NCBI RefSeq assembly: GCF_030445035.2
Contig: NC_080698.1
Span: forward strand, 1,123,501 to 1,187,500
From: Dasypus novemcinctus
Lineage: Eukaryota > Chordata > Mammalia > Cingulata > Dasypodidae
DNA length: 64,000 bases
Direction of reading: 5' to 3'
In this document: one piece after another, positions 23,831-49,000 of the stretch
How the letters are laid out: the number at the start of each line of letters is the position of its first letter
How positions within the stretch are numbered: position 1 is the stretch's first letter
Position numbers and translations under genes: made by a program
The notes under the pieces: model-generated
The model's database searches: none
Told to the model about the DNA's origin: nothing
What the model saw: only the letters and a program-made list of their open reading frames with translations

Positions 23831-24159
23831 CCGCGCTCGGCGCTGCACCGCGGGCCCGCCCGCCTGCCCCGGGCGCCTCTCGTCCCGGAGCCCGGGTGGT
23901 TGCAAGCGTGGCCGCCGTCGGCACCACCTGGAAAGCTCCAGAAACGCCCGGGCTCCGGCCCAGGGCGGCCGGGCTCGGGGCGTTGCAGAGGCCCCCGCTG
24001 ACCCCGCGCAGCCGACGACCCGGGGCCCTGCGGCGCGGCCCCGCTCGGCACCCCGGGCCTCGGCGGGTTAACGGGGGCGGGGCGCGGGGCTGCGCGGGGC
24101 GGGGCTGCGCGGGGCGCGCCCCCTCCTTCCCGGCTGCGCGGCCGCGGGCGCGGGGCGCC
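23830..24159 (+). promoter_or_regulatory. Likely CpG promoter of the caspase gene
   Basis: CG-dense, with GC boxes (GGGGCGGGGCGCGGGGC near 24070 and again near 24100) directly before the first ATG. No TATA box is seen. The transcription start is not placed. Confidence 0.5.
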
Positions 24160-24350
24160 ATGGAGGGGGCGCTGGGGGGCGCCATGGAGGGGGCGCGGGG
24201 GGGCGCCATGGAGGGGCCGCGGGCGCGGGGCGCCATGGAGGGGGCGCGGGGCGCCATGGAGGGGCCGCGGGCGCGGGGCGCCATGGAGGGGGCGCGGGGC
24301 GCCATGGAGGGGGCGCGGGGCGCCATGGAGGGGGCGCCGGGGGGCGCGCC
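24153..24350 (+). repeat. In-frame minisatellite of the caspase N terminus
   Basis: Units of 21 to 27 bases built on GCGGGGCGCCATGGAGGGG repeat eight times. They encode [16 protein letters not shown] and MEGALGGA. Every unit length is a multiple of three, so copy number can change without shifting the frame. Confidence 0.9.
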
Positions 24351-24628
24351 GGCGCTGGAGGAGCTGCAGAGCCGCCTGCAGGAGACCCTGGGCGTGCTGT
24401 CCCCGCGGGAGCTGCGCACCTTCCGCCTGCTGCTCAAGGCGGTGGACGAGGAGCCGCGCGTGAGCCCGCTGCAGCTGGAGCTGGAGGGCGGCAGCGCGCC
24501 GGGGCTGGCCCGCCTGCTCGCGCGCCACTACTACCTGCCCGCCGCGCCGCGCGTGCTCGCCAAGGTGCTGCGCCAGCTGCCGCGCCCCGACCTGCTGGCG
24601 CGCTGGCAGGGCGCGAGCGACCGCGACG
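24160..24628 (+). CDS. CASP15: CASP15-like exon 1: start repeat plus pyrin domain
   Basis: Carries eight in-frame ATG codons and the whole pyrin fold. No upstream in-frame ATG precedes 24160. The donor GTGAGC follows 24628 in phase 1. The last ATG of the array lies about ten codons before the pyrin domain and may be the ancestral start. Confidence 0.88.
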
Positions 24629-27600
24629 GTGAGCGCGGCGGGGGCGAGGGGAGGGGGCCCCCGAGGGAGCGGGCGGCGCGAAGGGCGGGCCCGGAGGGGG
24701 AGGGGGCTCGGGGGAGGCCTCGGGGGGAGGGGCGAGCGAGGGCGCCCTGGGGAGGGGGCGGGGCGGGGACCCGGCGAGAGGGCCCCCCTAGGGGGAGGGC
24801 CCGTCGAGGATGGGGATGGGGGTGGGGTTGGGGGCGGCGAGGGGCCCTGGGGACCTCAGAGGGGTCCCGAGCGGCGGCGCGCAGGTGAGCTGCGGGTACC
24901 TGCTTGGCGGGGGCGGGGCGAGCGCTCGGCGGGCGGCGGGTCGCCAGGTGGGGGGTCGCCAGGTGGGTGGTCGCCGTCCACCTGCAGCCGGAGGTGGAGG
25001 AGTTCGCCTCTACCGCGTCCTGGGGCTTCCGACCTGGGAAGTTTGCGGCGAGACCCCGCCGGGTCCCCTGCGGCTGCGTGTGGCCGGGGTGGGAGGGGGC
25101 ACCGTTTTCCGTGGATGTGCTAAGGGGTGGCTTAAGAAATGCAGGAACAGGTTGCGGGCGCTTGGCCCCCAGGTAAATGAATATTTTTGTGTGTGGAGAG
25201 AGAGAGCACCTGCAGGCGGGGAGCTGACCCTGAGGCCCTGCCCGCGGTCCCCGCCCACGGCAGGCGGACCCTGGCCGAGTTCTAGGTGTGTGGCCCGGGC
25301 TCAGGCCTCGGTAAGGCCGGCAGCTGCAGTCAAACGCCTGCGGGCTTGGAGCGCCTTCCTTGTATCTTCCACACCTGCACCTGCACCTGCACACCTGTGT
25401 TACCTCACAGCTTAGTTGTGTGCGAGTCACACTATCATCGTCATCCATTTAGAGCCTCTTTTTGCTGGCAGTGTGTGCATTTTCAGAATCATTCAGACTG
25501 CGCATCATCATGGCTACATGCTGTAGATGCTCAAACATTTGAATTAAATTTTAAGAGATTATGTTAAATTAGCAATAAAATGGGGTCACCTTACTTCTTG
25601 CCCCTCCCTAGGTCTCCGTCTCCTCTTTGGGAGGGGCACCTCCTCTTTCTGAGGCAGGGCCTGAACTTGACTTAGGTTGCCAGTCCCGCGAGTTCCGGAT
25701 GTGCTCCTGGTCCAGGATGAGATTATTGGGGGGAGAGGGGGGAGCGCATTAAGAGGAAGGACAGCAGATCTTGATTAAAGAGGTAAAAAAATGAGAAATA
25801 ATAATGCTCATTTTATTTTATTTTCCTTTTGTGAAAATTCATTCAGTTATTCCAAGAAAGATTGTAAAGAGAAGCTATGACTGTGTGGAAGATGAACTGG
25901 TAACTATTTTGTCTTATTCTAACACTGCACACTGTTTAAAGATAGTGTTTAGTCACCCTGTGGGCATTGTTTGTGCTGCTCGTTGCTTTCTGTTAAATAG
26001 TAAAAACGCTAGCCAGTTAGAAACACCGCGGGCCTGCTGCTCTTGGCAGACAAGCTGGGCGCTGTTACTCTCTCCACAAATAAGGTAGTGAGGCATAGGT
26101 CTGGCTGGTGGCTTTGGGCAGCTTATACAAATTGTCAGCTGCAGGTTGGTTTTAATTATGGAAATTTTAAGAACAGACAGAAGAGAGAGTAGAAAAATGC
26201 ACCTCGGGCCTGCAGCCTCTGCCCACCGCCCTGTTCAGCCGCAAGCGAGCTTGTTTCCTTTGCCCCCCCCATTCTAAAGCCAGTGTAAATGCAGTGTCAC
26301 TTTGATTTGTAAACCTGTCAGTTCGCATGTCTGAGAAAGGGCTTTCAAAAGGGACCCACAACACCCTCACGACGCCGGGGTGCGGCGGGCTCCCGCCCTG
26401 CTGGGTGCGCAGGCCTCGGCTTCCACGGGGGCCAGGCCGGGCTGGCCTTGAGGCCGCCACCGAAGGCTCTTCTCCCTGCCCGAGCTGGCCTCTGCTCCCT
26501 TGCCCAGGGCCCTCGCTCCCGCCCCGCTGTGTCCTGTTCTTTCTTAAACTGGGGGCCTGGGGCAGGAGCCGGCCTTCCCAGCCGTGTCCAGCCGAGGTAC
26601 CTGCGCCGCCCTCGCCGTCCCTGCGCCCCGCGGCGTCGGTCCGGGGCCGGGGTGTGACCGCTGCCCTCCCTGCAGGACTGCTACGACCTGAGCGGAGCGC
26701 GGAGGGCCTTCCTCCTGTGCGTGCTGAAGGACCGGCCGGGCGCGCGGCAGGACGTCCTGCTCATGCAGGCGTGGCTGGGCCAGTGCGGCTTCGAGCACAC
26801 GCCGTGCATCGACCCCGACAAAGCGGTGAGCACTGGCAGGAGGCTCGGGCTCTGTCCTCGTTCCTTCGCGGGAGACTCTCTCTCTCCCTGCCTGGCAGCA
26901 CCAGGGCCTGCTGCGCGGCACCCTGGATTCTTCCTCAGCTCGCCTCCGGCTGTGTTTGTCGGCCCTCGTAGAGTGACCGCCCGCCCGCCGGCCAGCGCAG
27001 GGCCCTTGGGGCGCCCATCTCAACCAGGGCCGCACAGCCGCAGAGGAGAGCTGAGGGCGCTCCTGGGCAGGGTGGCTGGGTGGGCAGGGAGCCCAAGGAA
27101 AGGGCCTGAGGGATGGGCAGGGGGACGCAGCGGCCTGAGAAGTCCACGGGGCCCTGGCTGGAGCAGGTGGGGCAGGAGAGATGGGGCTGGGATGACACAG
27201 AAAGAGCAGGTTACAGGGTGGGTGGGAGGGAACTGGGGGCGGTTGCCCAGGAAGGTCCTGGGAGTAGCCGTCGCTGTGAGCGGCAAGGACAGGGGACAGA
27301 GGGCCGGGGCAGGCGGGCTGGACGCCCTCAAGGCAGGTTTGCTCCAGGGGTGATTTCAGCCCCGGGGGCATGTCTGGGGCACCTGGTTGTCGTGCCTGGG
27401 GCAGGGGCTGCACTCGATGTCAGGGCAAAGTTCCCCCTTAACTGTGACTTCCTTTCCCATCTCTGGGGTAGGGGTGATGATAGCCACTTGCTGGTGGGGC
27501 TGCCGTGGGGGCTGCAGGGGCGGTGCGGGGTCCTCAGGGTCGTGTGTTCAGTAAACTTAGGTTTTATCGTTAGGCCTCAAAGTTAAAAACTGATTTCTTC

Positions 27601-30600
27601 ATCTCCCGAGGACTGTGCCAGCTGTCCCTTATGTTCCAAGACTTACTCCAGAGCGTTCCCTGCAGGTGGCGGATGCTCCCCAGATCTTGGGCTCTGTTCT
27701 CCCAGGTCTTTTCTTCGTCCTTGCCAAGACTTAATCTGTAAATATGTAGTAATCTGACTGGCAGATAGTCAGTTGTTTGAAAGGATTGAATGAACATCTC
27801 TTCCCCACATATCTGAAATTCCACCTTTATTTTGAAATAAAAATTAGATATTCTTGGATTGTTTCTAGGTTCTAAAATATTCTATCTATATATTTGCTTA
27901 TTCTTATGCCCATATCTCAGCTTTATTTGCCATGACTTTCTAATGCTTTTTTTTCGGTGCCGGGGCCAGGGATTGAACACGGGACCTCATACGTGGAAGG
28001 GGTCGCTCACCCACTGAGCTCCCCTGTTTCTAGTATTTAAACCCAATTTAAGTTTTATTTTCTCTCAATGGAATGGCTGGTGTCTCTGTTACAACACGCG
28101 GAGGAGTTGTGGCAACAGTGTTCCGTCTTTCCCTTTGAGTGGGGATGATTCTGGTGACATGTCCTGGTAGATCCTGGCAGGTACACGTATCGAGTCGACT
28201 CCTTCATTTCTTTCCATTTCTAGCTTGCTGAAGGCACTGATTTTGTAAAGTAACTTGTATATATTGAAATAAGTTAATACTATAAAATTCAAGAATACTA
28301 ACCCTTTGGGGAACTGTAATTCTGTTGTGTTTTGTGGTAGAGGCTCAGAAATACCCAACTTGTGTTAAACAAGAGCCAGGGACGTGATAGGAAGAAATCG
28401 TGTGACTTCTGAGAACAGCCAAAAGAGAAGTGGCAGTTAAGGAACTAATATCTATCTCTTATTTACGGTTAGGGACATAAGTATTTATATATTTACCTTA
28501 TCTGATCACTTGCAGAAGGTCCACTTTGCTAGCATTTCGGGTTTCCCCCCGCCCCCAGATTTTGTCATTTTTTCTGTAATGTGCTGTACTGTTTTACAGG
28601 AGTTACTTAGAAAAATAACAGCATTTCGTGATGGACTGAATGAGACTAAAGATGAAATTGGCTGTTGCCTTGTTACTCTTATGTCACATGGTGAAAATGG
28701 CTTCATTAAAATGAAAGACGGTGGCAGAGTCAGCCTGGAAGACATTTTTGAAATGTTTAATAATAAAAATTGTCCAGCACTTCAAGAGAAACCGAAGATC
28801 TTCATAATCCAGGCCTGCAGAGGCGGTAATTGACTTTTGTATCATCCTATTTCTAGGAAATTTTCACATTAGATGACAGAAAATAAAAGGGAAAATGTGA
28901 GTGTGTGTTTAAGTAGAGGACTCCTAACTGCTGTGACTTGCACGTAGTATATGAGGGACCTCAAGCTGCGGAAACAGGATGGAAGGAACACTCAGGGGAT
29001 GGAACAGTAAACTTAGGCCACGAGAGGGTCCACGTGGCTGACCTCGCGAGCTGGGCGGGGGGTCTCAGGCTCACGGGACACGGTTGGCCGCGAGCCGTGG
29101 GATTCCACGGGGCTTTTGGGACGAATCACCCACTTCCTTAGCTTTTTGTCGGTATTTCTCTTGTGGTGATACGAGCTTGTGATGACTTTCGTTAAGGGTC
29201 GCTGGGGTCAGCTGTGTCCGTTAGTGTGGTTTGTGTTTTATTTTCCTGAAAACACAGAGAAAAGAGACAGTGGTGTTGAAACAGACGATGAGCCGATGGA
29301 TTCTGACGACTATCAGGAGAAGAGGAGGCTGCCGACATTCAGTGATTATTTCATCATCTACCCTACCCAGCCAGGTGAGGCGGGCGTGTGCCGGAGATCG
29401 ACCTTCTTCCAGAGGGCGTTACAGCCTTTTCAGAAAATTATTACGCGTTCAAATTGGCACATAGAAGAACACACTTCATGAACCCTTCCAGCTCCCTTTA
29501 AAAAATGTTCCTGCTTTCAGAGATGGCAGGTTGGCATATATTTTTTTACTTTTTATTATTTTTTATTCATTTTTTTGAGTTACTAGGGTTTGGGGATTGA
29601 ACCTGGGACCTTGTATATTGTGGGAAGCTGGTGCTCAACCACTGAGCCTGTCGGCTTCCTGAGTTGGTTTTCCATTTGTTGTGCTTGTTGTTTGTTTTTG
29701 TTTTTTCAGGAGGCACTGGGAACCGAACCTGGGACCTCCCATGTGGGAGGCGGGAGCTTAACCACTTGAGCCATATCTGCTGCCTTGTTTATTTTTTAAA
29801 AGCGGTTTTTTTTTTAAAAAAAGATTTATTTATTTATTTAATTTCCCCCCCTCCCCTGGTTGTCTGTTCTTGGTGTCTATTTGTTGCGTCTTGTTTCTTT
29901 GTCTGCTTTTGTTTCTTTGTCCCCTTCTATTGTCGTCAGCGGCACGGGAAGTGTGGGCGGCGCCATTCCTGGGCAGGCTGCTCTTTCTTTTCACGCTGGG
30001 CGGCTTTCCTCACGGGCGCACTCCTTGCGCGTGGGGGCTCCCCCACGCGGGGGACACCCTTGCGTGGCACGGCACTCCTTGCGCGCATCAGCACTGCGCA
30101 TGGCCAGCTCCACACGGGTCGAGGAGGCCCGGGGTTTGAACCACGGACCTCCCATATGGTAGACGGACGCCCTAACCACTGGGCCAAAGTCCGTTTCCCT
30201 AAAAGCGGTTTTATTCACACACTGTACACTCCATTCAAAGTGTACAGTCAGTGTCTCTTAGTATAATCACAGTTGTGCTATCATCACCACAATCAATTTT
30301 AGAACATTTTCATTGCTCCAGAAAGAAAAACCCCATACTCCTATACCCCCCTATTAGTAACAGTTTTGTCTTTCCTTTCGTTGCTTATGCTTTGGATGTT
30401 AAGTCTAAGAAATCATTGCCTAACATAAGTTCCCGAAGATGCTTTCCTACATTTTATTCTAGGCGTTTATAGTCCTGGTTTAGTCTTTGATCCATTTTGA
30501 GTTAATTTTTGTATATGGTATGAGATGGACGTCTTCCTTTATTCTTTTGCAAATGGAGATCCAGTTCTCCCAGCACCATTTGTTGAAGAGATTATTCCTT

Positions 30601-33600
30601 CCCAATTGAGGGGACTTAGCAGCCTTTACAAAAATCAACTGGCCGGGAAGTGGCTGTGGCTCCATCAGTTTGGCTCCCGTCTACCACATGGGAGGCCCTG
30701 GGTTCGCATCCTGGTGCCTCCTGGTGAAGGCAGGCTCGCTCACGCCGCGGAGTGCCGCTGGCCCGTAAGCGCTGTGGGGTGCCCTCTGGCCCCCAAGCGC
30801 CGCGGAGAGCTGACTCAGCATGGTGATGCAACAAAAAAGGGAGACAAGCAAAAACACAGAAAAGCACCCAGGGAATGGACACAGAGACCAGAAAACAAGC
30901 AAGTTGCAAAGGTGGGGGGTGTAAAGAAAAAATAAAATAAAGACACAGAAGAAGACATAGCAAATGGACACAGAGAGTAGACAGCAAGCAAAAAACCACG
31001 AGGGGGTGGGATAAAAAATTAAAAAAAAAAAAATCAGTTGGCCATGGATACGAGGCTCCATTACTTACTCTCAATTAGATGTCGTTGGTATATATATCTT
31101 TGTGCTGATACCATGCCGTTTTGACTGCTGTAGCTTTGTTACATGTTTTAAAGTCAGGAAGTGAGTCCTCCAATGCTGTTCTTCTGTTTAAGATGTTTTT
31201 GGCTGTTTGGGGTCTCTTACCCTTCCAAATAAATTTGATAATTGGCTTTTTCATTTCTGCAAAGTAGGCTGTTGGAATTTTGATTGGAATTGTGTTGAAT
31301 CTGTAAATAATTTTGGGTAGAGTTGATATCTTAACAATACTTAGTCTTCCAACCCGTAAGCATGGAATGTCCTTCCATTATTTAGATCTTTGATTTCTTT
31401 TGGCAATAATTTACATCCTTGTTTAAATTTATCCCTAGATACTTGAGTCTTTTAGTTGCTATTACAAATGAAATTTCTATTTTTATTTCCTCCTCAGCTT
31501 GCTCAATGTATAGAAACACTGCTGATTTTTGTCTGTTGCTTTTGTACCCCTGCTCCCCACACGTTTTGCTAAACTCATTTATTAGCTCTAGTAGCTTTGT
31601 TGTTGATTTTTCAGGACTTTTCTGTATATAGGATCAGGTCATCTGCAAATAGGGAAAGTTGTACTTCTACTTTTCCAGTTTCGATGCCTTTTAGTTCTTT
31701 TTCTTGTCTCTGCTCTGGCTAGAACTTCTGGCACCGTGTTGAGTAACAGCAGGGGCAGTGAGCATCCTTGTCTTGTCCAGATCTTAGAGGGAAGGCTTTC
31801 ACTGTTTCCAGAGTGAAGTGATGTCAGCTGTGGGCTTCTTATACCTGCTCTTTATCATGTCGAGGGTGTTTCCTTCTCCTCCTATTTTTCTATTTTATCA
31901 AGAAAGGATGCTGAAATTTGTCAAATGCCTTTTCTACATCAATTGAGATGATATGTGGTTTTATTCCCTTCATTTTGTTGATGTGTTGTATTACATTAAT
32001 TGATTTTCTTGTGTGGGGTCCATGCTTGCATACCTGGGATACACCACTTGGTCAAGGTGTATACTTTTTTTTTTAGGTGGTAGTTGGGATCAAACCTGGG
32101 GCCCTCATACATGGGAAGCAGGTGCTCAACCACTAGAGCTATATCCACTCCCTGTATAATTCTTTTAATGTGTTGTTGGATTTGATTTGCCAGTATTTTG
32201 TAGAGGATTTTTACTTCAATATTTATAAGAGAAATTGGTCTGTAAATTTATTTTCTTATAGTGTCTTTATCTAGCTTTGGTATGAGAGTGATATTGGCCT
32301 CATAGAATGACTTACATAGTTTTCCCTTCCTTCTCTTCAGTGTTTTTGGAAGAGTTGCAGCAAGATTTGTGTTATTCTTCTTGGAATGATTGGTAGAATT
32401 CCCCTACGAAGCCATCTGGTTCTGGGCTTTTCTTTGTTTGGAGGTTTTTTGATGACTGATTTATTTTCTTTACTTGTAATTGGACTTTTGAGGCCTTATA
32501 TTTCTTCTAGAGTCATTGTAGTTTGTTTCTAGGAATTTGTCCATTTCATCTAGATTGTACAATTTGTTGACATATGGCTGTTCATAGTATCCTCTTACAA
32601 TCCCTTTCGTTTCTGTGGGTTCAGAAGCGTTATCCCCCCTCTCGTTTTCTATTTTACTTACTTACATCTTCTCTTTCTCTCTCTCTCTCTTAAGGTTTAT
32701 CAATTTTTCCTTGAGCCTTCAAGGAAACAACTTTTGGTTTTACTGCTCTCTTGTTTATTTATTCTCTGTTTATGTCTGTTCTAACCTCTGTTATTTCTTT
32801 CCTTCTGCATGCGTTGGGTTTGGTTTGCTGGTCTTTTTCTAGTTCCTCCCATGTTGCAGTTAGTTCTTTGATTGAAGCACTTTTTTTTTTAATTGTTAAG
32901 CATTTAGTGCTATAAATTTCCCTCTCAGCACTGCCTTCTTCGCATCCCGTAAGTTCTCATATGCTGTGCTCTCGTCTCCATTCATCCCAGGCTATTGACT
33001 GATTGCTCTTGTCGTTCTTCTTTGACCCACTGGTTGTTTAAGAATGAGTTATGTAACTTCCGTATATCTGTTGATTTTCCTGTTCTTTGCCTGTTATTTA
33101 TTTCCAGCTTCATTCCATTGGGGTCAGACAAGATGCCTTGTATAATTTCAATATTTTAAAATTCACTGATACTTGTTTTGTGACCCAGCATGAGGTCTGT
33201 CATGGAGAATGATCCATGTGCACCTGAGTAGAATGTGCGTCCTGCTGTTTTGGGGTGCAGTGTTCTGCATGTGTCTGCTAGGCCTAGTTCATTTATTTTA
33301 TTCAGGTTCACTAGTTGCTTATTGCTCTTCTGTCGAGACGTGCATCTGTAGGTGAGGGAGGTGTGTTGATGTCTCCAGCCATTACTGTGAGGGTGACCAT
33401 TTCTCCGTGAGTTTTGCCAGTGGTTGCCTCGTGTGCTTTCAGACCTGTGGTTAGGTGGATAAATATGCATGATTGTTATCTGTACTTGATGGGTTGCCCC
33501 TTTTATTAAGTTATAGTCTCTTTTTTTTTTATCTCTTGTAACAGCCTTTGTCTTAAAGTCTATTTTGTCTGTATTAGTATATCTATCCCACCTCTTTTTT

Positions 33601-36600: not shown

Positions 36601-39600
36601 ATTTTGTTTGTCCACTCATTGGTTGATGGGCACTGGGGTTGTTTCCATATTTTAGCAGTTGTGAATAATGCTGCTGTGCACATTGGTGTGCAGATGTCAG
36701 GTTGTGTCCTTGCTTTCAGTTTTTCTCAACAAATTCCTAGTAGCAGGATTGTTGGATCATATATAGTTCATATATAGTTCTATATTCAGCTTCTCGAGGT
36801 ACTGCCGAATTGTCTTCTGCAGAGGCTGCACCTTTAATTAGGAAAATTAAGAGTTGTCCTAATTCTTCACATCTTCTCTAGCACTTGTAGTGTTCTGTTT
36901 TAAAATACTGGCCATTCTATAAAATGTGAAATATCTTACTGTAATTTAGACCTGTATTTCCCTAATAGCTAGTGATGTTGAACATTTTTTTCCTGTGCTT
37001 TTTGGCCATTTGTATTTCTTCTTCGGAGAAAAGTCTATTAACGTCCTTTGCCCATTTTTTAATGGGGTTGCTTATCTTTTTATCATTGAGTTGTATGACC
37101 TCTTTGTATAACATGGAAATCAAACCCTTATTGAATATGTGGTTTTGAAACATTTTCTCCCATTGAGTAGGCTGCCATTTTACTTTCTTGACAAAGTCTT
37201 TTGAAGAACAAAAGTGTTTACTTTTGAGGAGGTCCCATTTATCTGTTTTTTCTTTCATTGTTCATGCTTTGGGTATAAGGTTTATACCTTACACCGCTTA
37301 TGACAAGATCTTTAAGGTGTTTGTTTTCCTACATTTTCTTCTAGGAGTTCTATGGCTGTAGCTTTTATATTTAGGTCCTGGATCCTTTTTTTTCTTTTTT
37401 AGCTTAAAACATTAATATAATGTGCAGAATTCCCATATCTCCACCAACTTAGATTGTTGTGGAACATTTTTTACAGATAATGAAAGAACTCTGTCACTCA
37501 TTTTGTTTTAGTTTTTGTGTGAGGAGTAAGGTAGGGATCCTCTTTCTTTTGGATGTGGATATCCAAAACCAGCACCGTTTGTTGAATAGACTCTTCTGGT
37601 CTGGCTGGGTGGGTTTGACTGACATGTCAAAAATCACTTGATCATAGATGTGAGGGTATATTTCTGATAACCGAGAAATACGCTGTGGTCAGGGTGTGTG
37701 TCTTTATGCCAGGGCCGTGCTGTTTTTACCACCGTAGTTAAGTAAAATGCTTTAATGTCAGGAAGGGAGAGTCCTCCAACTTTTTTCTTTTTAAAGACAT
37801 TTTTAATGTATACATTAAAGTATACAGTTTGGTTAGATATATTGTAAGTATACACTTGTGACTCTATCTCCATAATCAAGAGAAGCAAATATTTCTATCA
37901 CTCTGAAAACTTTTCTCATGTTATAATCCGTCCCTTCCTCCAACCCCATCTCCAGGCAGCTACAGGTATATGAAATGTCTCTATAGGTTATACTGCATTT
38001 TCTAGAATTTTATATAGAATAATGCCATACAATATTATAATGTATGGCTTATTTTTCCACTTGGCATAATGGTTTTGAGATTTGGCCATGTTTTGTGCAT
38101 TGATAAAACAATCCTTTTATTGCTGAGTAGTATTCCATTGTATAGATATACCACATTTTCTTTATCTGTTCACATTTGTTGGACATTTGGGTTGTTTCAC
38201 TTTTGGGTTATTCCAAATAAAGCTGCTATGAACATTCATATACAAATCTTTGGACATGCATTTCTGTTTCTCTTGGGTAAATACCAAGGAGTGGAATGAC
38301 TACTTCATATTGTAGGTGTATGTTTAACTTTTAAGAAACTGTCAATTTTTTTCCAGAGTATTGGCACCTTTTACATTCCCACCAAGAGCATATGAGAGAA
38401 TTCCAGGTGTTTCACATCCATGCCAACGCTTGGTATAGTTACTTTTAAATACTTGACTCGTCTAAATGGGTGTGCAGGTTGAGCACATTGTGGGTTAATT
38501 TGCAGTTCCCAGAAGACTAGTAAGATCCACTGTCTTTTATTGTGTTTATTGGACATCTATTTTTCTTCTTTTTCTAAGTGTCTTTTCATATCCTTTGCCT
38601 AATTTTTTGATTGGATTGTTTGTTTTCTTATTATTGAGTTGTAAGTGTTCTTTGTATGTTCTGAATGTAAGTCCTTTGTCTGATGTATGTTAGAAGTATT
38701 TTCTCCCTATCTTTGACTTACCTTTTTCATTTTCTTAATGTGTTCCAAAAGCAAACGTTTTACATTTTGAGGAATTTATCGATTTTTTCCTTTTATGGCA
38801 TGTGGGGTTTTTGGTTCTATCTAAGGAACTTTTGCAATCATGAGGTTGCAAAGATGGCCTCTTGTTTTTTTCTGGTTTGAACCCAGATTATTATGAGAGG
38901 GTGCAATTCTGATATTCTCATCAAGTTTCCATAACAAACACATTTTTCATGTTTTTTATTTATTTTATTTTATTTTTTTAAAAGATTTATTTATTTATTT
39001 CTCTCCCCTTTCCCCCCACCACCTCACCCCAGTTGTCTGTTCTCTGTCTATTTGCTGCGTCGTCTTCTTTGTCTGCTTCTCTTGTCAGCAGCACAGGAAT
39101 CTGTGTTTCTTTTTGTTGGGTCATCTTGCTGCATCAGCTCTCCGTGTGGGCGGCACCATTCCTGGGTAGGCTGCACTTTGTTTCACGCTGGGCGGCTCTC
39201 CTTACGGGGCACACTCCTTGCGCGTGGGGCTCCCCTATATGGGGGTCACCCCTGCATGGCAGGGCTCTTCTTGCACGCATCAGCACTGCACATGGGCCAG
39301 CTCCACACGGGCCAAGGAGGCCCGGAGTTTGAACCGTGGACCTCCCATGTGGTAGGTGGACACCCTAACCACTGGGCCAAGTGCGCTTCCCGTGTTTTTT
39401 AATCTAATAGTAAAAGTAACTTCAATTGTTAAATCTTTTGAGAACCCCCAAGTAAATTCCTTGTAGATGGATTTGGGGGTAAAATGACATACTGGAAATT
39501 TACTTAAAATGCTATAGTGGGGAAGCTGATGCGGCTCAAGCAATTGGGTTCCTGCCTACCACATGGGACTGGGTTCAGTTCCTGGTGCCTCCTGAAAAAG

Positions 39601-42600
39601 ACAAGACAGTGAGCTGATGTGATGGGCTTGCACAGCGAGCTGACACAACAAGAGGCATAGGGAGGACAGCATAATGAGAGATACAACAAAGCAGGGAGCG
39701 GAGGCGGCTCGGCGATTAGGCGCCTTCCTCCCATGGGTTCCGTTCCCAGCACCTCCTAAAAGAGGAAGACGAGCACACAACAAACAGACGCAGTGAGTGC
39801 AAACAGCAAGATGGGGGCGAAGTAAAATCTTTAAAAAAATTCTATAGTAAAGTCCAGCAATTAAAAAAAGAAAGAAAAGAGTTAAATGAAGCAATATAGC
39901 AAGATATTGGTGACTTTTGAATCTGGGAGATGGTGAGAGGGGGTTATACTTTTCTTTTTAAAAGGCATGTGATAAGATGCCCTCTGGAGGGCTTGGGGAC
40001 TCGGCTGTGCCACTGTTGCCACCAGCCCGGAGAGGGGGGCTCATCCCCTCAGACATCCTGCTGATTCTGTATCTCAGATCAAAGCCGTTTGCTGGGCTTT
40101 GTCCAAAGTAGAAGACGTTAACTGCACACAGAGGAGAGGACTGGATGGAATATTTTTGTTTTCCTCATAGATCACGTTGCTCTACGGCACCCCCGCACAG
40201 GTTCTGTGATGATTGAAGCAATGTCCGAGGTCTTCAAACAGTGTGGCACAAAGTGGCACATTGCCGACTTTTTCACCAAGGTAAGTAAATTCAAGTGAGC
40301 TTGTGCTCCCGTCATTCCAAGGCTAATGCATTTCCTGAGAAGATCTACTTTATCCATGAAACCCTGAGAGTTGCCAGAAAGCCTCATGGAAACATGAGCT
40401 GATGATTCGTTGTTTGAAGGGCCGTGGCCAAGAGAAAGTTCAGGTAGTGGCTGGTGGTGAGGGTAGCGCAGCACTGAATGAGGTGAGGGGTTGAGGTGGG
40501 AAAGCTTGTGGTGTATGTGTGTTTCCTCAGTTAAAAAGAGAGTGCCTAAAGAGCTAGAGGCAGTGACAATTAAATGCATTACTTGATCCTGGACTGTCTC
40601 TAATGGAGGAGAAAAAGCCTCAGTAGGTCATTACTGGGACGTGATAAAACTGGAAAAGAGTCTATAAACTGTCTACTAATGAAGTTTAATTTCTTGAACT
40701 TGATAACTGCACTTAGGATGGTTATATGAGAGAGCATCCTTGTTCTTAGGAAATGCCCGTGGGTATATTATGTGTTCAAGGAACATGATGTATACAGCCT
40801 ATTCTCAAATGATTATAAAATGGAAAGAAACAAAGATAGGTAGAATGAAAGACAGGAACACCAGGTGTAGTAAAATGTTAAACTTGGTGGATCTGGGTAT
40901 CTGGTAGGGTGGGGTGGGGAGTTGGAGTTCTCTTATGGGTTTTGTATTATCTTTCCAACTGCCTTCTTAAAATTTATTTGTCTTTATTTTTTAATGTCAC
41001 ATTCAAAAAATATGAGGTCCCCATATACCCCCCACCCCCCTCACCCCACTCCCCACACAGCAGCAACCTCCTCCATCACCATGGCACATTCATCGCACTT
41101 GGTGAATACGTCTCTGAGCACTGCTGCCCCACATGGTCAATGGTCCACATTACAGTTTACACTCTCCCCCAGTCCACCCAGGGGGCCATGGCAGGACATA
41201 CACTGTCTTTTAGTTTAAGAAGAAAAAGGAAGGAAAACATAGTGGCAGTTGCTATTGTTGATAAATGGATTGGGTATGAGGTGGACTCTCAGGTCTGTTG
41301 CTGGCGGCAGCTCTGTGCCGCCTCACCTCCCCAGGCCGCGCGGGGTCATGGAGGACCAGCACTGCCTGTCCAGCTCGGAGCCTCTGGTGAACGTGCACCG
41401 GACGATGAGTAGCCAAGAGTTGCAACAGATTTATAACGACTTGTAGTTTGGAGACTCTTTGGATTACAGTGGTTTATCATATTGAGATAGAAGAGTAATT
41501 TCCCTCTTAACCTGGGAGTTTTATACTTGAGAGAGCTAATTAGAAAAGGGTTTAGTTGAGGTCAGTAACCGCAGTGCTAACAGTCATCACGTGGTTCGCT
41601 CTGTGCCAGTGCCTGTTCTCTGCACTTACTGAGAGTGATCCATGGAACCCACTATTGGAGATGGGTGGACACTCAGGCCCAGAGCTGGTCAGCAGGGAAG
41701 GGTGGATTCCGGCCCAGGCACAGCAGGTCTGGAGTTCGCGGTCTAACCACTCGGCTGCAGTTATCTTCACCTCCCCACCTTGTGGTGATTGCTTTTGTTT
41801 CTTTTTTTAAAAAAGATTTAATGTTAATACTTTGCATATGATACCAGTCTTAAAAACTCTTCCGGGGAACGGATGTGGCTCAAGCAGCTGAGCTCCTGCT
41901 TCCTACATGGGAGGTCCCAGGTTCAGTTCCCAGTGCCTCCTGAAAAAACAGAAAGGAAAAAAAAAGAAAGCAAAATGAAAAAACCAACTCAGGGGCGCTG
42001 ATGTGGCTCAGTGGCTGAGCGCCAGCTTCCCACATACGAGGTCCGGGTTCAGTCCCTGGCCCCAGCGCCTAAACAGAACAAAACAAACTCTTCCACCTCA
42101 TTTGAGGTGAGCTCTTTGGAGGGAAATCTTAAAAGGGAAGAAACTAGAAGCTATTTTTGACAGTCATTTCAACCATATTTACCAATATCTTTTATTGCTC
42201 AGTTTCTTTAAGAAAATGGTTTCTTGTCAACTTTGCAGGAATATGTAATAAAGACAGATTTAATCAACATGTAAATATAAATCCATTTTAGCTAACACCA
42301 AAAAATTGTTTTACCGATCATTGTTCATTAATAAGTCTTTAACGAATACTCTTCATTAAAATTTTTTTTAAATTAGAGCAGTTGTAGGTTTAGAAAAATC
42401 ATGCAAAAAGTACACAGTTCTCATTTACTACCTCTGCCCCACATACACACACGTTTTCCCTATTATTAACATTATGCGTTAGTGTGGTACCTTTGTTACA
42501 ATTGATGGAACAATATTATTATATTTATATTAACTGTAGTCTATCATTTACTATAGGTTTCACTCTTTTATATAGTTATATGGAATTTCAATTTTAATTT

Positions 42601-45600
42601 TGGTAGCAATTTCCCATTTTAACTACATTCAAATATACAATTCAATGGTGCTAATTATATTCACAACATTGTACTACCATCTTGACCACCCCAAACAGAA
42701 ACTCTATACCAATTTTTAAAAATTTTTCTTTAGAAACTATACCAATTAAATGTTAACTCCCCACTCCCCGCACCTACCCTGACCCCTGGCAACCTGTATT
42801 CTAATTTCTGACTCTATGAATTTGCTTATTCTCATATCAGTGAGATCATACAATATTTGTCCTTTTGTGAATGACATTTTATTCAACATGTCTTCAAGGT
42901 TTATCCATGGTTGTAGAATGCGTCAGAGCTCATTCCTTTTTTACACTGAATAATATTCCATTGTATGCAAACACCACTTTTTGTTTACTCATTCACCTGT
43001 CGATGGACACTTGGGCTGCTTCCACCTTTTGCCTAGCACTGCCGTGAACATGTGTGCACAGGTGCTTACATGAGGTGTGTCCTAGGAATGGAATTGCTAA
43101 GTCCTATGGTAATTCTGTATTTTCTGAAGAATTACCAGACTCTTTTACATAGCAACTGAACCATTCCCTTCAAGAGTGTATGAGGGTTCCAGTATCTCCA
43201 CATTCTTACCAGCATTTGTTTTCCTTTTTTAAAGATATAGTAGCCATCCTGGTGGCTGCGAGGCGGCATATCGTTGTGGTTTTAACGGGCGTCTCCCTAA
43301 CCGCTTATGTTGTTGAGCGTCTTTTCATGTGCTTACTGGACCTTTTTTTTCTTCTTTAGAAAAAGATCTATTCATGTCCTTTGCCCTTTTTTTTCTTTTT
43401 TTCCCCCATTGTTGTGTCTGTCTTTAGGTCAGTACCATGCTGTTTTTACCACCTTAGGTAGGTATTATGATGTAAAATCTGGAGATGAGGGTTCACACTT
43501 TTCCTTTTATGATGTTTCTGGCTATTTAGGACTCCTTATCCTTCCAAATAAATTTAATGGTCGTGTTTTCAATTTTTTCTTTAATGCTGGTGGAATTTTT
43601 ATCGGGATTGCATTAAATCTATATATCAATTTGAGTAGAATTGACATCTTAATGGTATTTAGTCTTCCAGTCCTTGAGCATGGAATGTTCTTCTAGTTAT
43701 TTAGTGCTTTTTTTATTTGTTTTAACATTGAGTTACAGTTTTCTGAATACAAGTACATTACATCATTGGTTAAGTTTATTCCTATTTGAATTTTATTATT
43801 TGTCATATTTTATTTTCACCACTCTTTTGACACTTGTAGTTGCTTTTATTGATATACTCTTCATTTCTGGACTCTCTTCTAGGCTCCTTTCTCCTCTCTT
43901 TTCTTTTCAGACTCTGGGACACCCTTTAGTATTTCCTGAAAATCTGGTCTCTTGCTTAGAAATTCTCTCAGTTTCTGTTTATCTGTGAATAATCTAATTT
44001 TGCCTCATTTTTGAAAGACAGTCTTGCTTGATATAGGAATCTTGACTGTAAGTTTTTCTTTGTAGTATCTTAAATATATTTGACCACTGTGTTCTTGCCT
44101 CCATGGTTTCTGGTGAGGAATCAGCACTTAATCTTACTGGGTATCCCTTACACGTTATGCATTGCTTTTCTCTTGCTGCTCTCAGAATTCTCTCTCTTTG
44201 TCTTTGGCATTTGACATTCTGATGAGTATGTGTCTCAGAGTTGGTCTATTTGGATTTTTTCAGATAGGAGTATGTTGTGCTTCTTGACAGGGATATCTGT
44301 CTTCAGTAGGATTGGGAAGTTTTCTACCAGTATTTTTTCAAATATTCCTTCTGCCCCTTTTCCCTTCTCTTCTCCTTCTGGGACACCATAACACGTATGT
44401 TTGCACACTTTTTGCTGTCATTTAGTTCCCTGAGACCTCGTTAATTTTTTCCATTCTTTTCTTTATCTGTATGTTCACTTTCAGAGGCCATTTCTTCAAG
44501 CTCACCAATCCTTTCTTCTGCTTCCTCAAATCTGCTATTTTATGATTCCAGTGTTTTTAAAATTTCTTTTATCATACCTTTCATTCCCATAAGATCTGCT
44601 ATTTTTCTATGTATGCTTTTAAATTCTTCTTTGTGCTCATCTAGTGTCTTCTTAATACCCTTAATCTCTTTAGCCATCTCATTGAATTTATTAAGGAGAT
44701 TTGTTTGAACATCTATGATTAGTTGTCTCAACTCCTTTATGTCATCTGGAGGTTATCTTGTTCCTTTAACTGGGCCATAGCTTCCTGTTTCTTGCTGTGG
44801 GTTATAATTTTTTGTTGGTGTATGGCATCTGGCTGACTAGAGTATTTATTCTAGGTGCTGTTTTTCTGTTTCGTTTAGGGCTTCCTGCCCTTTCTCCCTT
44901 GCTGGTTGTGCAGTAGGAGCCATGGATGTAGTTGGTGCTATAAGCTGTGGGGGCTCAAGCTGCCCTCCTTGCCCCAGGGACCAATGAAGGTTCTCCCAAC
45001 TTTCTCCTTTGCCAGGGGTAGGGACAGAGTCACAGCTGTGTGGAATAATCCAAGTCATGAAGGCCTAGGCTGTAATTGCCCAGAGAGACTGATGAAGCTT
45101 CATGCCCCTTTCTCCCCTGCCTAGGGCAGGGATGGAGCTGCAGGGGTGGGCAGCAATCTGTGCAGTGCAGGTCCTAAGAGGACCACAGTTGCCCTGGTAG
45201 ACTTCTGATTTTCAGTCTGTGCCAGCCAAAGTTTCCTGCAGTTGCCTGAATAGGCTGGTGCAGGGCTCCTCAGCCTCCTCCCTGCCAGAGGCGGGGCTGA
45301 AGCCTAGGCAGGCTGCAGGCTGCGTGAAAGAAGCTGTCAGCCCGACTTCCCCTCAGGCTGGGGTGGCATCAGAATGGTGGCTACTGGCCTCTTTCTGACT
45401 TGGGCTGGTTCTCACCCCAGCTGTTCCCACGGTTATCCCTTAACCAGCCAAGCCTCCCAATCAGTAGCTGAAATCAGCAGCCAACCGTCTCCTCCTCCCC
45501 TGTTTCTGGGAAATGGAGCTTCCAATTCCTGTCACAGAGCAGCTCCTGGGGCAGCTCATGCCACCAGAGTAGGACAATCACCGGCCTACACAGCTTGGCC

Positions 45601-47476
45601 GGTAATTTCCTGGAGAGGCTGGCACAGGTCCCTGCAGCTTCCTCCCTGCTGGAGGTGGCACTGGGGCCTAGGCTGGAGCTGCAATCTGACCTGGGTGGGA
45701 AGAAGCCGGTCCCACCAGCACTGGGATTCTCAGTCCACCCCGCTTCCCCTCATGCCAGGCGTGGAGTTAAGATGGCGGCTCCCAGCCTCTTTCTGACTTG
45801 GACAGGCTCAAACTTTAGCTGTTCTCAGGATCATACTGTAGCCCACCGAATTTACTCATCAGTAGCTGAAATTGGTGCCCAACTGTCTCTTCCTCCCCTG
45901 TTTTGGGGAAGTGGAGCTTCCAGTTCCAGCCACGGAACAGCTCCCGAGGCGGCTTGTGCCTCCAGTGGAGACTGGGCACTGGCCTCTGGGGCGTGGCGCC
46001 TCTACTTACGAGTCCTCTCTGCAGATGGGCATCTCCTCCTTCCACTCCCCAAGGACGTTGCAGGATACTCTTCTGGCCTCCTGGAGCCCCCACGCAGGTG
46101 CTGCAGCAGCTCCAGAGAGCTCTGGGTGTTTGCGGACTGCCCTGGAGCAGGAGACGACTCTAGGAGCTCCTTACTCCGCTACCATCTTGCTCGTTCTCCG
46201 TTTTCCCTTTTTTAAATTGGATTGTTGTCTTTTTGTTGTTGAGTGGTTAAGGGTACTTTATATACTCTGGACATTAAACCCTTATGAGATATATGGTTTC
46301 AACATATTTCTTCCCATTCTGTGGGTTGCCCTTTACTTTCTTGATAATGTTCTTTGATGCATAGGTTTTTTTATTTTGAGAAAGTCTCATTAATATATTT
46401 TTTCTTTTGTTACTTGTACTTTTGGTATGAAGTCTAAGAAACCATTGCCTAGCACGAGATCCTGAAGATGCTTTTCTATGTTTTCCTCTTGGAGTTTTAT
46501 TGTTTTGTTTTTTGTTTTTTTCTCTTTATTTTTTTAATGTTACATTAAAAAAAATGAGGTCCCCATATACCGCCCACCCCCCTCACCCCTTGTTTTGGTT
46601 TTTATACATACATTTTTTATCCACTTTGAGTGAATTTTTGAATATGGTGTGAGGTACAGGTCCAGTTTCATTTCTTTTGCATGTGGATACCCAATTTTCC
46701 CAGCACCTTGGTGGAGAGACTATTCTTTCCCCATTGATTGGACTTGGCATCCTTGTCAACGATCACTTGACCACAGATGTGAGCGTTGATTTCTGAACTC
46801 TGAGTTCGATTCTGTTTCCCATTGCCTTTCCTTGTGCCAGTACCACGTTGTTTGGGTTATTGTAGCTTGTATTAACTTCTGAAATGGGGGGTGTGAGTTC
46901 TCCAACCTTGCTCTTTTTCAAGATGGTTCTGGCTATTCCAGCACCCTCATTTTTAAAGCACTTCACTGAGTCGACACTGGCAAGAGGTCGAGAGACATGC
47001 GTGATGTGGCCCTTGCATTAGAGCTGCTTCCAGGGCAGCGAGGTAGCAGGGGATGCGCTCACCACCCTGCAGCTTTCGAGCTGGGTGCTTTGCGGTACAT
47101 GGTCCAGCTGCTCACTTGACCTTGAGTCCCAAGGCTGAGACAAGGTCAGGATCTTGCCCGATGCTACCTGGTGGCAGGTGAGGCTCACCCCCAGGTCAGC
47201 AGGTTCTTCTCTGTTGCTCTGCCCACCCCCCAGTGCTGCGTCTGGTCCCTTAGCAGGATGCTTGTTTCCTGGCCTCGTGCCTGGGCGCTGCCTTGGCACC
47301 GGGTGAGGTTTGCTGAAGGGCTTTTTGCTCAGGGCTTCGCCTTCTTTTGGAAAACTTGTGCTTTTATCTTACAGGTGAATAACAGAGTGGTGCACACTGA
47401 ATTTCATCTGCGGGACGATCCAGTGAAAGTATCCCTTGTAATGGAATCCACTTTAACTAAATCTGTGTACTTTTGA
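24160..47476 (+). CDS. CASP15: Pyrin-domain caspase, caspase-15-like (seven exons, intact)
   Basis: Predicted cysteine protease of 408 residues from the first ATG. Exons: 24160-24628, 25847-25899, 26676-26825, 28600-28825, 29258-29374, 40171-40280 and 47375-47476. All have GT and AG intron ends and compatible phases. Residues 1-65 are a MEGARGA repeat. Residues 66-150 are a pyrin domain ([14 protein letters not shown], then [10 protein letters not shown] and [14 protein letters not shown]). Residues 157-174 are a linker. The catalytic domain starts with [20 protein letters not shown], close to caspase-14. The catalytic His254 (SHG) and Cys297 (QACRG) are present, as are likely S1 arginines R194 and R344. 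The subunit linker (300-338) is acidic, with VETD and EPMD as possible self-cleavage sites. The small subunit ends KSVYF. Caspase-15 is, from memory, the mammalian caspase with a pyrin prodomain, known in pig, dog and cattle but absent in human and mouse. A death-effector or CARD prodomain fits poorly. Confidence 0.88.
24640..25840. other. Caspase intron 1
   Basis: G-rich to about 25300 with short direct repeats (GGTCGCCAGGTGG near 24940-24975; CACCTG hexamers near 25375-25400). AT-richer after that. No extra exon recognised. Confidence 0.5.
25847..25899 (+). CDS. CASP15: CASP15-like exon 2: linker
   Basis: A 53-base exon encoding [18 protein letters not shown]. The acceptor is ATTCAG, the donor GTAACT. 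It takes phase 1 from exon 1 and hands phase 0 to exon 3, which supports a real exon even though its sequence is not diagnostic. Confidence 0.72.
25905..26670. other. Caspase intron 2, no repeat recognised
   Basis: AT-rich first half, GC-rich second half, with no interspersed repeat or additional exon that I can see. Confidence 0.45.
26676..26825 (+). CDS. CASP15: CASP15-like exon 3: start of the catalytic domain
   Basis: Fifty codons from [18 protein letters not shown] to CIDPDKA. It aligns with the start of the caspase-14 large subunit (YDMSGARLALILCVTKAREG). R194 in DRPG matches the S1-pocket arginine position. Acceptor CTGCAG, donor GTGAGC. Confidence 0.92.
26830..27945. other. Caspase intron 3, 5' part
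   Basis: G-rich unique sequence to about 27550, then AT-rich. Nothing else recognised. Confidence 0.45.
27950..28030 (-). mobile_element. DAS-type SINE, reverse
   Basis: Reverse-strand head with CAGGGATTGAACACGGGACC and CCACTGAGCTCC. Confidence 0.75.
28600..28825 (+). CDS. CASP15: CASP15-like exon 4: His and Cys catalytic residues
   Basis: Begins [15 protein letters not shown] and includes LMSHGENGF and the active-site pentapeptide QACRG. The acceptor TTACAG follows a pyrimidine tract; the donor is GTAATT. Leaves in phase 1. Confidence 0.95.
29258..29374 (+). CDS. CASP15: CASP15-like exon 5: inter-subunit linker
   Basis: Thirty-nine codons, [18 protein letters not shown] then [16 protein letters not shown]. 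The acidic stretch lies where caspases are cut between large and small subunits. Acceptor ACACAG, donor GTGAGG, phase 1 to phase 1. Confidence 0.93.
29550..29665 (-). mobile_element. DAS-type SINE, reverse
   Basis: GGGGATTGAACCTGGGACC and GTGCTCAACCACTGAGCC on the + strand mark an inverted tRNA-like head. Confidence 0.75.
29700..29790 (-). mobile_element. DAS-type SINE, reverse
   Basis: AACCGAACCTGGGACCTCCC and TTAACCACTTGAGCC mark another inverted head directly beside the previous one. Confidence 0.75.
29815..30200 (-). mobile_element. DAS long-form SINE, reverse
   Basis: Reverse complement of the long form, ending at CCACTGGGCCAAAGTCCG. It is opposed to the + strand copy at 18240. Confidence 0.92.
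30640..31030 (+). mobile_element. DAS-type SINE in the L1
   Basis: Flanked by imperfect copies of AAAAATCAACTGGCC, showing insertion into ORF2 of the reverse L1. Confidence 0.85.
32068..32155 (-). mobile_element. DAS-type SINE, reverse
   Basis: GGGATCAAACCTGGGGCCC and GTGCTCAACCACTAGAGC mark an inverted head. Confidence 0.75.
33925..34082 (-). mobile_element. DAS-type SINE, reverse, rearranged
   Basis: Tail AAAGATTTCTTTATTTATTT, body GTCGCCCTCTATCTGCTC and a partial head GTAGCTTGAGCCACTTCC. Confidence 0.7.
34682..34992 (-). mobile_element. DAS-type SINE, reverse
   Basis: From a tail AAGATTTATTTTTATTTC to the head CCCGGGACCTCCCATGTGG and GAGCCACATTCGCTTCC. Confidence 0.85.
35500..38945 (-). 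mobile_element. Stacked L1 3' ends, reverse
   Basis: At least two L1 copies. At 35500-37790, a 3' UTR (AATGCTGCTGTGCACATTGG) and ORF2 C-terminal sequence are broken by an insert at about 37380-37480. At 37790-38940 there is an older copy with similar 3' text (CTGAGTAGTATTCCATTGTA). None keeps an open frame. Confidence 0.75.
38960..39393 (-). mobile_element. DAS long-form SINE, reverse
   Basis: Same layout as the copy at 29815 with the extra middle block; head end CCACTGGGCCAAGTGCGC. Confidence 0.9.
39520..39838 (+). mobile_element. DAS-type SINEs, two heads in tandem
   Basis: A first head at 39520 (GAAGCTGATGCGGCTCAAGC) and a second at about 39695 (GGAGCGGAGGCGGCTCGGCG), followed by one A-rich tail. 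Probably one insertion into another. Confidence 0.75.
40171..40280 (+). CDS. CASP15: CASP15-like exon 6: small subunit, S1 arginine
   Basis: Encodes [18 protein letters not shown] and on to WHIADFFTK. The LRH arginine aligns with the substrate-binding arginine of other caspases (YRH in caspase-14). Acceptor CATAG, donor GTAAGT. The preceding intron is about 10.8 kb, mostly L1 and SINE. Confidence 0.93.
40980..41220 (-). mobile_element. L1 3'-end fragment, reverse
   Basis: TATGAGGTCCCCATATACCC followed by C-rich text; matches the fragments near 11700 and 46560. Confidence 0.65.
41555..41765 (-). mobile_element. MIR SINE relic, reverse
   Basis: GTGCCAGTGCCTGTTCTCTG, then GGATTCCGGCCCAGGCACAG and GGTCTAACCACTCGGCTGC, a typical old MIR layout. 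Confidence 0.65.
41862..41950 (+). mobile_element. DAS-type SINE, short
   Basis: GGATGTGGCTCAAGCAGCTG, AGGTTCAGTTCCCAGTGCC and an A-rich tail. Confidence 0.85.
41990..42088 (+). mobile_element. DAS-type SINE, divergent subfamily
   Basis: GATGTGGCTCAGTGGCTGAG and CACATACGAGGTCCGGGTTC; same head type as the copy at 21046. Confidence 0.8.
42350..43420 (-). mobile_element. L1 3'-end fragment, reverse
   Basis: Old copy with AACACCACTTTTTGTTTACT and similar 3' region wording, 5'-truncated. Confidence 0.65.
43430..46195 (-). mobile_element. L1 LINE 5' half, reverse
   Basis: Includes the L1 5' end (reverse complement of the AAGATGG start, near 46175), two 5' UTR monomers about 400 bases apart, and ORF1 ([20 protein letters not shown] and the part after it). 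A piece of ORF2 lies at 43430-43720. Its 5' UTR is the same type as at 18771, in the opposite direction. Confidence 0.82.
46200..46985 (-). mobile_element. L1 3' end fragments, reverse
   Basis: ORF2 C-terminal and 3' sequence split by a short stretch ATGAGGTCCCCATATACCGC near 46555. Confidence 0.65.
47375..47476 (+). CDS. CASP15: CASP15-like exon 7 and stop
   Basis: Encodes [16 protein letters not shown] and on to TLTKSVYF, then TGA at 47474. It matches the caspase small-subunit end (caspase-14: NPEIQSTLRKRLYLQ). The acceptor is CTTACAG. I found no AATAAA close downstream, so the 3' end is unplaced. Confidence 0.92.
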   Translation: MNNRVVHTEFHLRDDPVKVSLVMESTLTKSVYF

Positions 47477-47889
47477 CATTAGGAACAATGAAAATACAAG
47501 ATCTGCTTTGAGGTAGACTTTGTAATGAGCTGGGAGGGTTTCTAGCATTGTATTGGCATTGTATATTGCATTATTTCTCACAAGTGGTAATAATACAGAT
47601 GGTATTTCTCCAGTTTGTTTTATATACATGTTATTTTTCTAAGATTTAAGTAGCTTTTTTAATGATGCTTTTTTGATACTTGTGATTAGACTTTTTTTTT
47701 TTTACGATCTCTGTGGTTTAAAAAATTTTTTTTTCTGAACTGTTATCAAAAAATGGAAGTCCAGACCTGTGCTTTGTGCGCTGTTTTGTCATGTGTCCCT
47801 TGTGGATTAATCCAGCCCCTCCCCCATTGCCCCCCGGTTTGGTGCTGGAGCTGAGCCTCGTCTCCTGGGCCAGGGTTCAGGAACTGCGG

Positions 47890-48880: not shown

Positions 48881-48884
48881 AGGA

Positions 48885-49000
48885 TAACAAACTCTGGACT
48901 GAGCAGGAGTTTTAACTGTAATTGTGCTTTAACTTTCTGTGTCACTTTGGACCTTATTTGTGCCTTGGTTTCCCAATGTGCATGAGAGATTTGGCTCAGC
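48885..49000 (+). mobile_element. MIR SINE relic
   Basis: TTTCTGTGTCACTTTGGACC and CTTGGTTTCCCAATGTGC match the MIR core order. A second possible MIR piece in reverse lies at 49490-49575. Confidence 0.55.

What the first reader, a model, noticed from the sequence alone, without database searches (positions are those of the whole stretch)
24160..47476. Intact pyrin-domain caspase between SLC25A38 and RPSA
Seven exons with matching phases encode a pyrin domain fused to a caspase-14-like protease with SHG and QACRG intact. Human and mouse have no functional caspase of this architecture, and in human SLC25A38 and RPSA are direct neighbours. The combination matches caspase-15, which I recall from pig, dog and cattle. 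An intact copy in a xenarthran would place the gene in the placental ancestor and make the human and mouse absence a loss. A pyrin prodomain suggests direct recruitment to ASC-type platforms.
Basis: partly seen in the sequence, partly recalled or inferred. Interest (0 to 1): 0.88.

Follow-up and report, generated by a model that had tools for sequence, protein, structure and literature searches.

The report
Intact caspase-15 gene, probably armadillo
This stretch carries a complete, apparently working copy of caspase-15, a known protease gene that humans and mice have lost, and an old retrotransposed copy of its spliced message elsewhere in the same genome shows that it was once transcribed and spliced as predicted.

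Summary
Seven + strand exons (24160-47476), GT-AG with compatible phases, join into a 408-residue protein with a pyrin domain (Pfam E 3.5e-9) and a caspase domain (E 4.3e-42), catalytic His254 and Cys297 intact. SLC25A38 and RPSA flank it. The linker has Asp-Asp pairs at Cys+12/+13 and Cys+19/+20, exactly the autocleavage offsets reported for pig caspase-15. It is caspase-15.

New here: the same genome holds a frameshifted, intronless retrocopy spanning all six exon junctions and about 1.85 kb of 3'UTR, bounded by an 11-bp direct repeat: a fossil cDNA that confirms the splicing. The parent has no disabling change; the retrocopy has 12 frameshifting indels and two premature stops. Where their caspase domains differ, the parent agrees with paralogues 38 to 7. 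Divergence-based constraint tests were inconclusive.

No paper found here links caspase-15 to Xenarthra; the two primary papers could not be read. Species unverified. Verdict: new orthologue of a known gene, with one oddity, a minisatellite of eight in-frame ATGs.

The parts
24115..24159 (+). 5'UTR, approximate; start inferred from the 5' end of the retrocopy
   Evidence: about 13 bases of clear match (from 24122) just inside the retrocopy's left direct repeat; inference
24160..24628 (+). CASP15 exon 1: start-codon minisatellite and pyrin domain
24146..24342 (+). Minisatellite carrying eight in-frame ATGs (24160, 24184, 24208, 24235, 24256, 24283, 24304, 24325)
25847..25899 (+). CASP15 exon 2
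26676..26825 (+). CASP15 exon 3, start of the caspase domain (YDLSGAR)
28600..28825 (+). CASP15 exon 4, SHG and QACRG motifs
29258..29374 (+). CASP15 exon 5, intersubunit linker with D309-D310 and D316-D317
40171..40280 (+). CASP15 exon 6, small subunit
47375..47476 (+). CASP15 exon 7 coding part, ends in TGA
47477..49330 (+). CASP15 3'UTR, extent inferred from the retrocopy
9790..13789 (+). SLC25A38 exons (upstream neighbour; outer limits of tblastn pieces)
52135..55809 (+). RPSA exons (downstream neighbour; outer limits of open frames read by eye)
52904..53051 (+). SNORA62/SNORA6-family snoRNA in an RPSA intron
54564..54716 (+). SNORA62/SNORA6-family snoRNA in an RPSA intron

Best explanation
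This is the intact orthologue of caspase-15 (CASP15) at its known place between SLC25A38 and RPSA. Shown here: gene structure, domains, catalytic and cleavage-site residues, synteny, past germline transcription and splicing (retrocopy), and an open frame kept long after that retrocopy arose. Inferred: the pyrin domain gathers pro-caspase-15 on a pyrin-domain platform (ASC/PYCARD, NLRP or pyrin type), or possibly on a ligand such as LPS; clustering pairs the catalytic domains, which cut themselves between the paired aspartates of the linker into large and small subunits; the active protease cleaves IETD-like sites and drives apoptosis, as reported for the overexpressed pig enzyme (Bid cleavage, caspase-3 activation). 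Identity and intactness I hold at about 0.95, the recruitment mechanism at about 0.6.
For: Spliced ORF with consistent phases. PYRIN and Peptidase_C14 above Pfam cut-offs. PYD modelled as six helices; the first 18 of 50 listed fold matches are all pyrin domains. D|D sites at C+12 and C+19 as in pig. Synteny. YDxSGAR shared with this genome's CASP14 and CASP16; apart from its own exons and the C11 retrocopy, the best match in the genome is the CASP14 locus on C45 (E 3.8e-16). Retrocopy spanning all six junctions, with 3'UTR and an 11-bp direct repeat. Parent 0 disabling changes, retrocopy 12 frameshifting indels and 2 premature stops. Parent agrees with paralogues 38 v 7 (p 3e-6), still 24 v 6 (p 0.0014) away from gaps. 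PYCARD present. Pig biochemistry and the lipopolysaccharide idea: PMC12292325.
Against: Divergence-based tests do not show constraint: coding and 3'UTR divergence from the retrocopy are equal (0.226 and 0.224); pairwise omega 0.87 (0.63-1.21) overall, 0.71 (0.45-1.16) for exons 4-7, 1.12 (0.74-1.8) for exons 1-3. Exon 6 in a duplicated block is not significantly less diverged than its introns (13 of 110 v 167 of 983, p 0.18; without CpG 9 of 100 v 157 of 963, p 0.06). No transcript data for the living animal. No vertebrate caspase-15 sequence was available. The best PDB sequence matches are caspase-7 chains (E 5.4e-26; no caspase-14 or -15 among the best 60 of 226 listed). The PYD resembles PDB pyrin domains only weakly by sequence (best E 0.084), and only one of five models was confident.
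Confidence: 0.85

Rival explanations
1. It is caspase-15 but no longer under effective selection: the frame is open by recent luck or by weak selection only, and the gene is on its way to loss as in other lineages.
For: Coding divergence equals 3'UTR divergence; omega not different from 1. Minisatellite growth at the start of the protein. The gene was lost in other lineages (PMC12292325).
Against: The retrocopy gathered 12 frameshifting indels and 2 premature stops while the parent has none. Parent keeps His254, Cys297 and Arg194, the retrocopy has lost all three. Differences fall mainly on the retrocopy side, 38 v 7, although a faster local mutation rate there could help cause this.
Confidence: 0.12
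2. It is another caspase that gained a pyrin domain independently, as in fish caspy/caspb, and not the caspase-15 orthologue.
For: Identity to short CASP1 and CASP3 pieces (24 of 52, 35 of 87) is no lower than to CASP14 (86 of 228), and no tree was built. Best PDB matches are caspase-7.
Against: Same locus, same linker Asp-Asp spacing as pig caspase-15, shared YDxSGAR with CASP14 and CASP16.
Confidence: 0.02
3. Chance assembly of exon-like stretches or a processed or partial pseudogene.
For: Very GC-rich, repetitive exon 1.
Against: Six introns, domains above Pfam cut-offs, and an intronless copy elsewhere that joins the same exons.
Confidence: 0.01

Closest known systems
Caspase-15 (CASP15) of pig, dog, cattle, cat, opossum, platypus, green anole
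   Same: Locus between SLC25A38 and RPSA, pyrin prodomain, catalytic Cys, linker D|D cleavage sites at the same distance from Cys (reported in PMC12292325; found here)
   Different: Longer N terminus made of an eight-ATG minisatellite (catalytic Cys at 297; 258 in pig by the review); a lineage not mentioned in the passages of the papers seen. No sequence-level comparison with these orthologues could be run.
Caspase-14 and caspase-16
   Same: Caspase domain starting YDxSGAR; both found in this genome (L025, L024)
   Different: Caspase-14 has no prodomain and caspase-16 a caspase-like prodomain (PMC12292325); neither has a pyrin domain
Zebrafish caspy/caspa and caspy2/caspb
   Same: Pyrin domain joined to a caspase
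   Different: Closer to caspase-1 by the review's account (PMC12292325); not compared here
Human CASP15 remnant
   Same: Same locus, by PMC12292325
   Different: Degenerate in human, open here

Membership tests
Caspase-15 | Pyrin-fold prodomain | tested here: met
   Pfam PYRIN 37.1 bits, cut-off 22.9; six-helix model and PYD fold matches
Caspase-15 | Caspase catalytic domain with His/Cys dyad | tested here: met
   Peptidase_C14 E 4.3e-42; SHG 253-255, QACRG 295-299
Caspase-15 | Gene between SLC25A38 and RPSA | tested here: met
Caspase-15 | Autocleavage sites at Asp-Asp, 12 and 19 residues after the catalytic Cys | tested here: met
   C297, D309-D310, D316-D317; pig C258, D270-D271, D277-D278 from PMC12292325. 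Sites present; cleavage itself not tested.
Caspase-15 | Member of the CASP14-like subfamily by phylogeny | tested here: inconclusive
   Shared YDxSGAR and best other-gene match CASP14, but identities to short CASP1, CASP3 and CASP7 pieces are similar and no tree was built
Caspase-15 | Direct sequence orthology to pig, dog or opossum caspase-15 | not testable with these tools
   No vertebrate genome or proteome collection held other than the window's own genome
Caspase-15 | Proteolytic and pro-apoptotic activity, IETD preference | not testable with these tools
   Reported for pig (PMC12292325)
ASC-dependent inflammasome caspase | PYD-PYD recruitment to ASC | not testable with these tools
   PYCARD present in the genome; the interaction is untested for caspase-15 by the account of PMC12292325

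The most novel reading that the evidence does not exclude
In this lineage caspase-15 is a functioning, fast-evolving pyrin-domain caspase whose start codon lies in an expanding minisatellite, so that alleles make N termini of different length in front of the pyrin domain and so tune its assembly; the retained gene would make this animal a natural place to test what the lost human caspase did.
Probability: 0.12. Interest if true: 0.6.

Novelty: new member of a known kind. Interest (0 to 1): 0.4.

Why it matters
It gives what looks like a complete CASP15 in a lineage that the passages seen of the 2025 review do not mention (a term search for xenarthra, armadillo and sloth in it found none). If the animal is a xenarthran, the Afrotherian loss can be placed after the split from Xenarthra, and a mammal that can be studied carries a pyrin-domain caspase that humans and mice lack. 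The retrocopy is an unusual, RNA-free proof of past splicing that also gives the transcript's extent and an internal comparator for decay. None of this changes the published picture of an ancient gene lost several times.

Tried and rejected
Chance or artefact: rejected because an intronless copy elsewhere joins the same exons. Another caspase: rejected on synteny and linker spacing. L018/L031 (C32) as a second retrocopy: rejected; it is a duplicated genomic block of window 39860-40960 holding exon 6 with intron on both sides. Constraint by codon position led nowhere (differences 0.203, 0.248, 0.227 at positions 1, 2, 3). Constraint by omega and by coding against 3'UTR divergence: not significant, or none. 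Constraint by exon 6 of the C32 block: p 0.18, 0.06 without CpG sites. A caspase tree was not built: only 49 columns were common to the seven sequences. Matching the window's pyrin domain to 14 other pyrin loci of the genome by tblastn: no match at E 0.01.

Literature: caspase-15 alone 28 papers, 20 listed; caspase-15 with armadillo 1, with Dasypus the same 1, whose passages use the armadillo for other pyroptosis genes; with Xenarthra 0; CASP15 with gene loss and mammals (listing); CASP15 as a whole word was swamped by a structure-prediction contest (listing); a retrocopy search gave nothing on point (listing). PMC2779465: passages only. The 2006 and 2008 Eckhart papers are not held, so whether they already scored the armadillo is unknown.
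Full report
Observation. The window was re-read with tools. SHG (253-255) and QACRG (295-299) are present. Pfam gives PYRIN at 72-145 (E 3.5e-9) and Peptidase_C14 at 192-406 (E 4.3e-42), both above the curated cut-offs.

Neighbours. RPSA lies downstream (52135-55809; exons read by eye; Ribosomal_S2 by Pfam and PDB 40S ribosomal protein SA at E 9.5e-51 for the one exon piece given). Two SNORA62/SNORA6-family snoRNAs lie in its introns, so it is the intron-bearing gene and not a processed copy. All three genes point the same way.

Membership. The 2025 review PMC12292325 (abstract, passages, and sections 5 and 7 seen) describes caspase-15 as the only pyrin-domain caspase in mammals, located between SLC25A38 and RPSA, with autocleavage in pig after D270 and D277, each followed by another Asp, and with catalytic C258. 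Here Cys is 297 and the pairs are D309-D310 and D316-D317: offsets +12/+13 and +19/+20, identical to pig. The S1-pocket positions of caspase-1 (recalled: Arg179, Arg341, Ser347; matched by eye) are occupied by Arg, Arg and Ser (R194, R344, S350). The caspase domain starts YDLSGAR, as do this genome's own CASP14 (YDMSGAR) and CASP16 (YDLSGAR). In the genome search the best match to another gene is the CASP14 locus on C45 (44%, E 3.8e-16). Identities are 86 of 228 to CASP14, 73 of 228 to CASP16, 58 of 169 to PDB caspase-7, 35 of 87 to CASP3, 40 of 131 to L002 and 24 of 52 to CASP1, so identity alone does not settle the subfamily; I built no tree. In the PDB the best sequences are caspase-7 chains (E 5.4e-26; best 60 of 226 shown).

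Pyrin domain. Folded alone it gives six helices at mean pLDDT 83.7 in the best of five models; the other four have 67.5, 60.5, 53.4 and 52.9. The first 18 of the 50 fold matches listed are all pyrin domains, TM-score (query) 0.65-0.77, but none of 127 reaches E 0.001, which I put down to the short helical fold. By sequence alone the best PDB pyrin match is weak (E 0.084).

A fossil cDNA. A search of the window's own genome with the caspase domain (19 matches) found, besides the gene's own exons, an intronless match on contig C11. Aligned to the coding sequence it covers nt 189-1227 and spans all six exon junctions (71% identity; 72% over 1338 columns). The junction of exons 1 and 2 falls in a deletion of the copy and is therefore less clean than the others. 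Homology goes on through about 1.85 kb of 3'UTR to window 49330, interrupted by insertions that look like the SINEs of this genome. The copy is bounded by an exact 11-bp direct repeat, and an A-rich stretch stands before the second one. This is an L1-type processed copy of a spliced caspase-15 mRNA. It shows transcription and splicing as modelled in an ancestor's germ line and suggests transcript ends near 24115-24122 and 49330. Between the stop codon and 49330 there is no AATAAA or ATTAAA; the only one up to 50500 is at 49363. The 3'UTR difference of 0.224 is a Jukes-Cantor distance of about 0.27, or 0.13 per lineage; with a recalled mammalian rate near 2e-9 per site per year that is very roughly 60 million years.

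Is the gene maintained? For: the retrocopy has 16 indels, 12 of them frameshifting, and two premature in-frame stops, the parent none. The copy has lost the catalytic His, the catalytic Cys and Arg194, which the parent keeps. In the caspase domain parent and retrocopy encode different residues at 89 of 211 aligned codons; the parent alone agrees with a paralogue at 38, the retrocopy alone at 7, neither or both at 44 (p 3e-6). Dropping codons near gaps leaves 31 v 7 and 24 v 6 (p 0.0001 and 0.0014). A faster mutation rate at the retrocopy's site could contribute. Against or neutral: coding divergence equals 3'UTR divergence (0.226 and 0.224); omega is 0.87 (bootstrap 0.63-1.21) overall, 0.71 (0.45-1.16) for exons 4-7 and 1.12 (0.74-1.8) for exons 1-3. 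In a genomic block duplicated on C32, exon 6 differs at 13 of 110 sites and its introns at 167 of 983 (p 0.18; 9 of 100 and 157 of 963 without CpG, p 0.06), with no gap inside the exon and 22 gap openings outside it. Taken together the frame has been kept for a long time, the amino acids may have changed fast, and present-day use is not proven.

The N terminus. The coding start lies in a minisatellite (24146-24342) with eight in-frame ATGs, each in the context GGCGCCATGG; the first in-frame stop upstream is at 23665 and no further in-frame ATG intervenes. The retrocopy shares about 13 clear bases of 5' sequence and then passes almost directly to the pyrin domain without the repeat, so the repeat either grew later or was deleted from the copy. 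Which ATG is used cannot be told.

Mechanism. Most likely: pyrin-domain clustering, proximity-driven autocleavage at the D|D sites, protease activity on IETD-like targets and cell death, by analogy with pig caspase-15 as reported in PMC12292325. PYCARD is present on C37, with PYD and CARD pieces (CARD 79% identical to the recalled human one), and PYDC1-like and MEFV-like pyrin domains lie on the same contig (the last two names rest on similarity and on recalled human positions). The review says that the pyrin interaction has not been tested and also raises LPS binding.

Novelty. The gene, its place, its architecture and its loss in Euarchontoglires and Afrotheria are in print (PMC12292325; PMC2779465 passages). 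Orthologues in opossum, platypus and lizard already establish that the human and mouse absence is a loss. Within the open-access library I found no paper that holds both caspase-15 and Xenarthra and one that holds caspase-15 and armadillo or Dasypus, which uses the armadillo for other genes in the passages seen. The primary papers of 2006 and 2008 could not be read and may already list the armadillo.

Noticed in passing
G000:C11:14398694-14402849 (L023 about 1695-5850): Frameshifted, intronless CASP15 retrocopy with 3'UTR, SINE-like insertions and an 11-bp direct repeat at both ends; lacks the ATG minisatellite.
   Followed up: yes
G000:C32 about 28560549-28561801 (L018, L031): Duplicated genomic block of window 39860-40960 carrying exon 6 with flanking intron and altered splice sites.
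   Followed up: yes
window 22588-23826: Large C-rich minisatellite (best row 22887-23826: 186-bp unit, 5.1 copies, 93% matches) upstream of the CASP15 start, in a stretch of over 80% GC.
   Followed up: partly
L024 (G000:C37:70680000-70689900): CASP16 with a caspase-like prodomain copy appears present; integrity not checked. Runs of N lie nearby.
   Followed up: partly
L025 (G000:C45:43308000-43317900): CASP14 pieces in order, so CASP14-, -15- and -16-like genes are all in this genome.
   Followed up: partly
L045 and L043 (G000:C37:28391000-28405000): PYCARD (PYD and CARD pieces) close to a PYDC1-like pyrin domain.
   Followed up: partly
window 47477-49330: The inferred poly(A) site has no AATAAA or ATTAAA upstream in the 3'UTR; the nearest is 33 bases downstream at 49363.
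   Followed up: no
L001 and L006 (G000:C12:14103922, G000:C1:180790992): Intronless caspase-3-like copies, each with an in-frame stop (name by eye).
   Followed up: no
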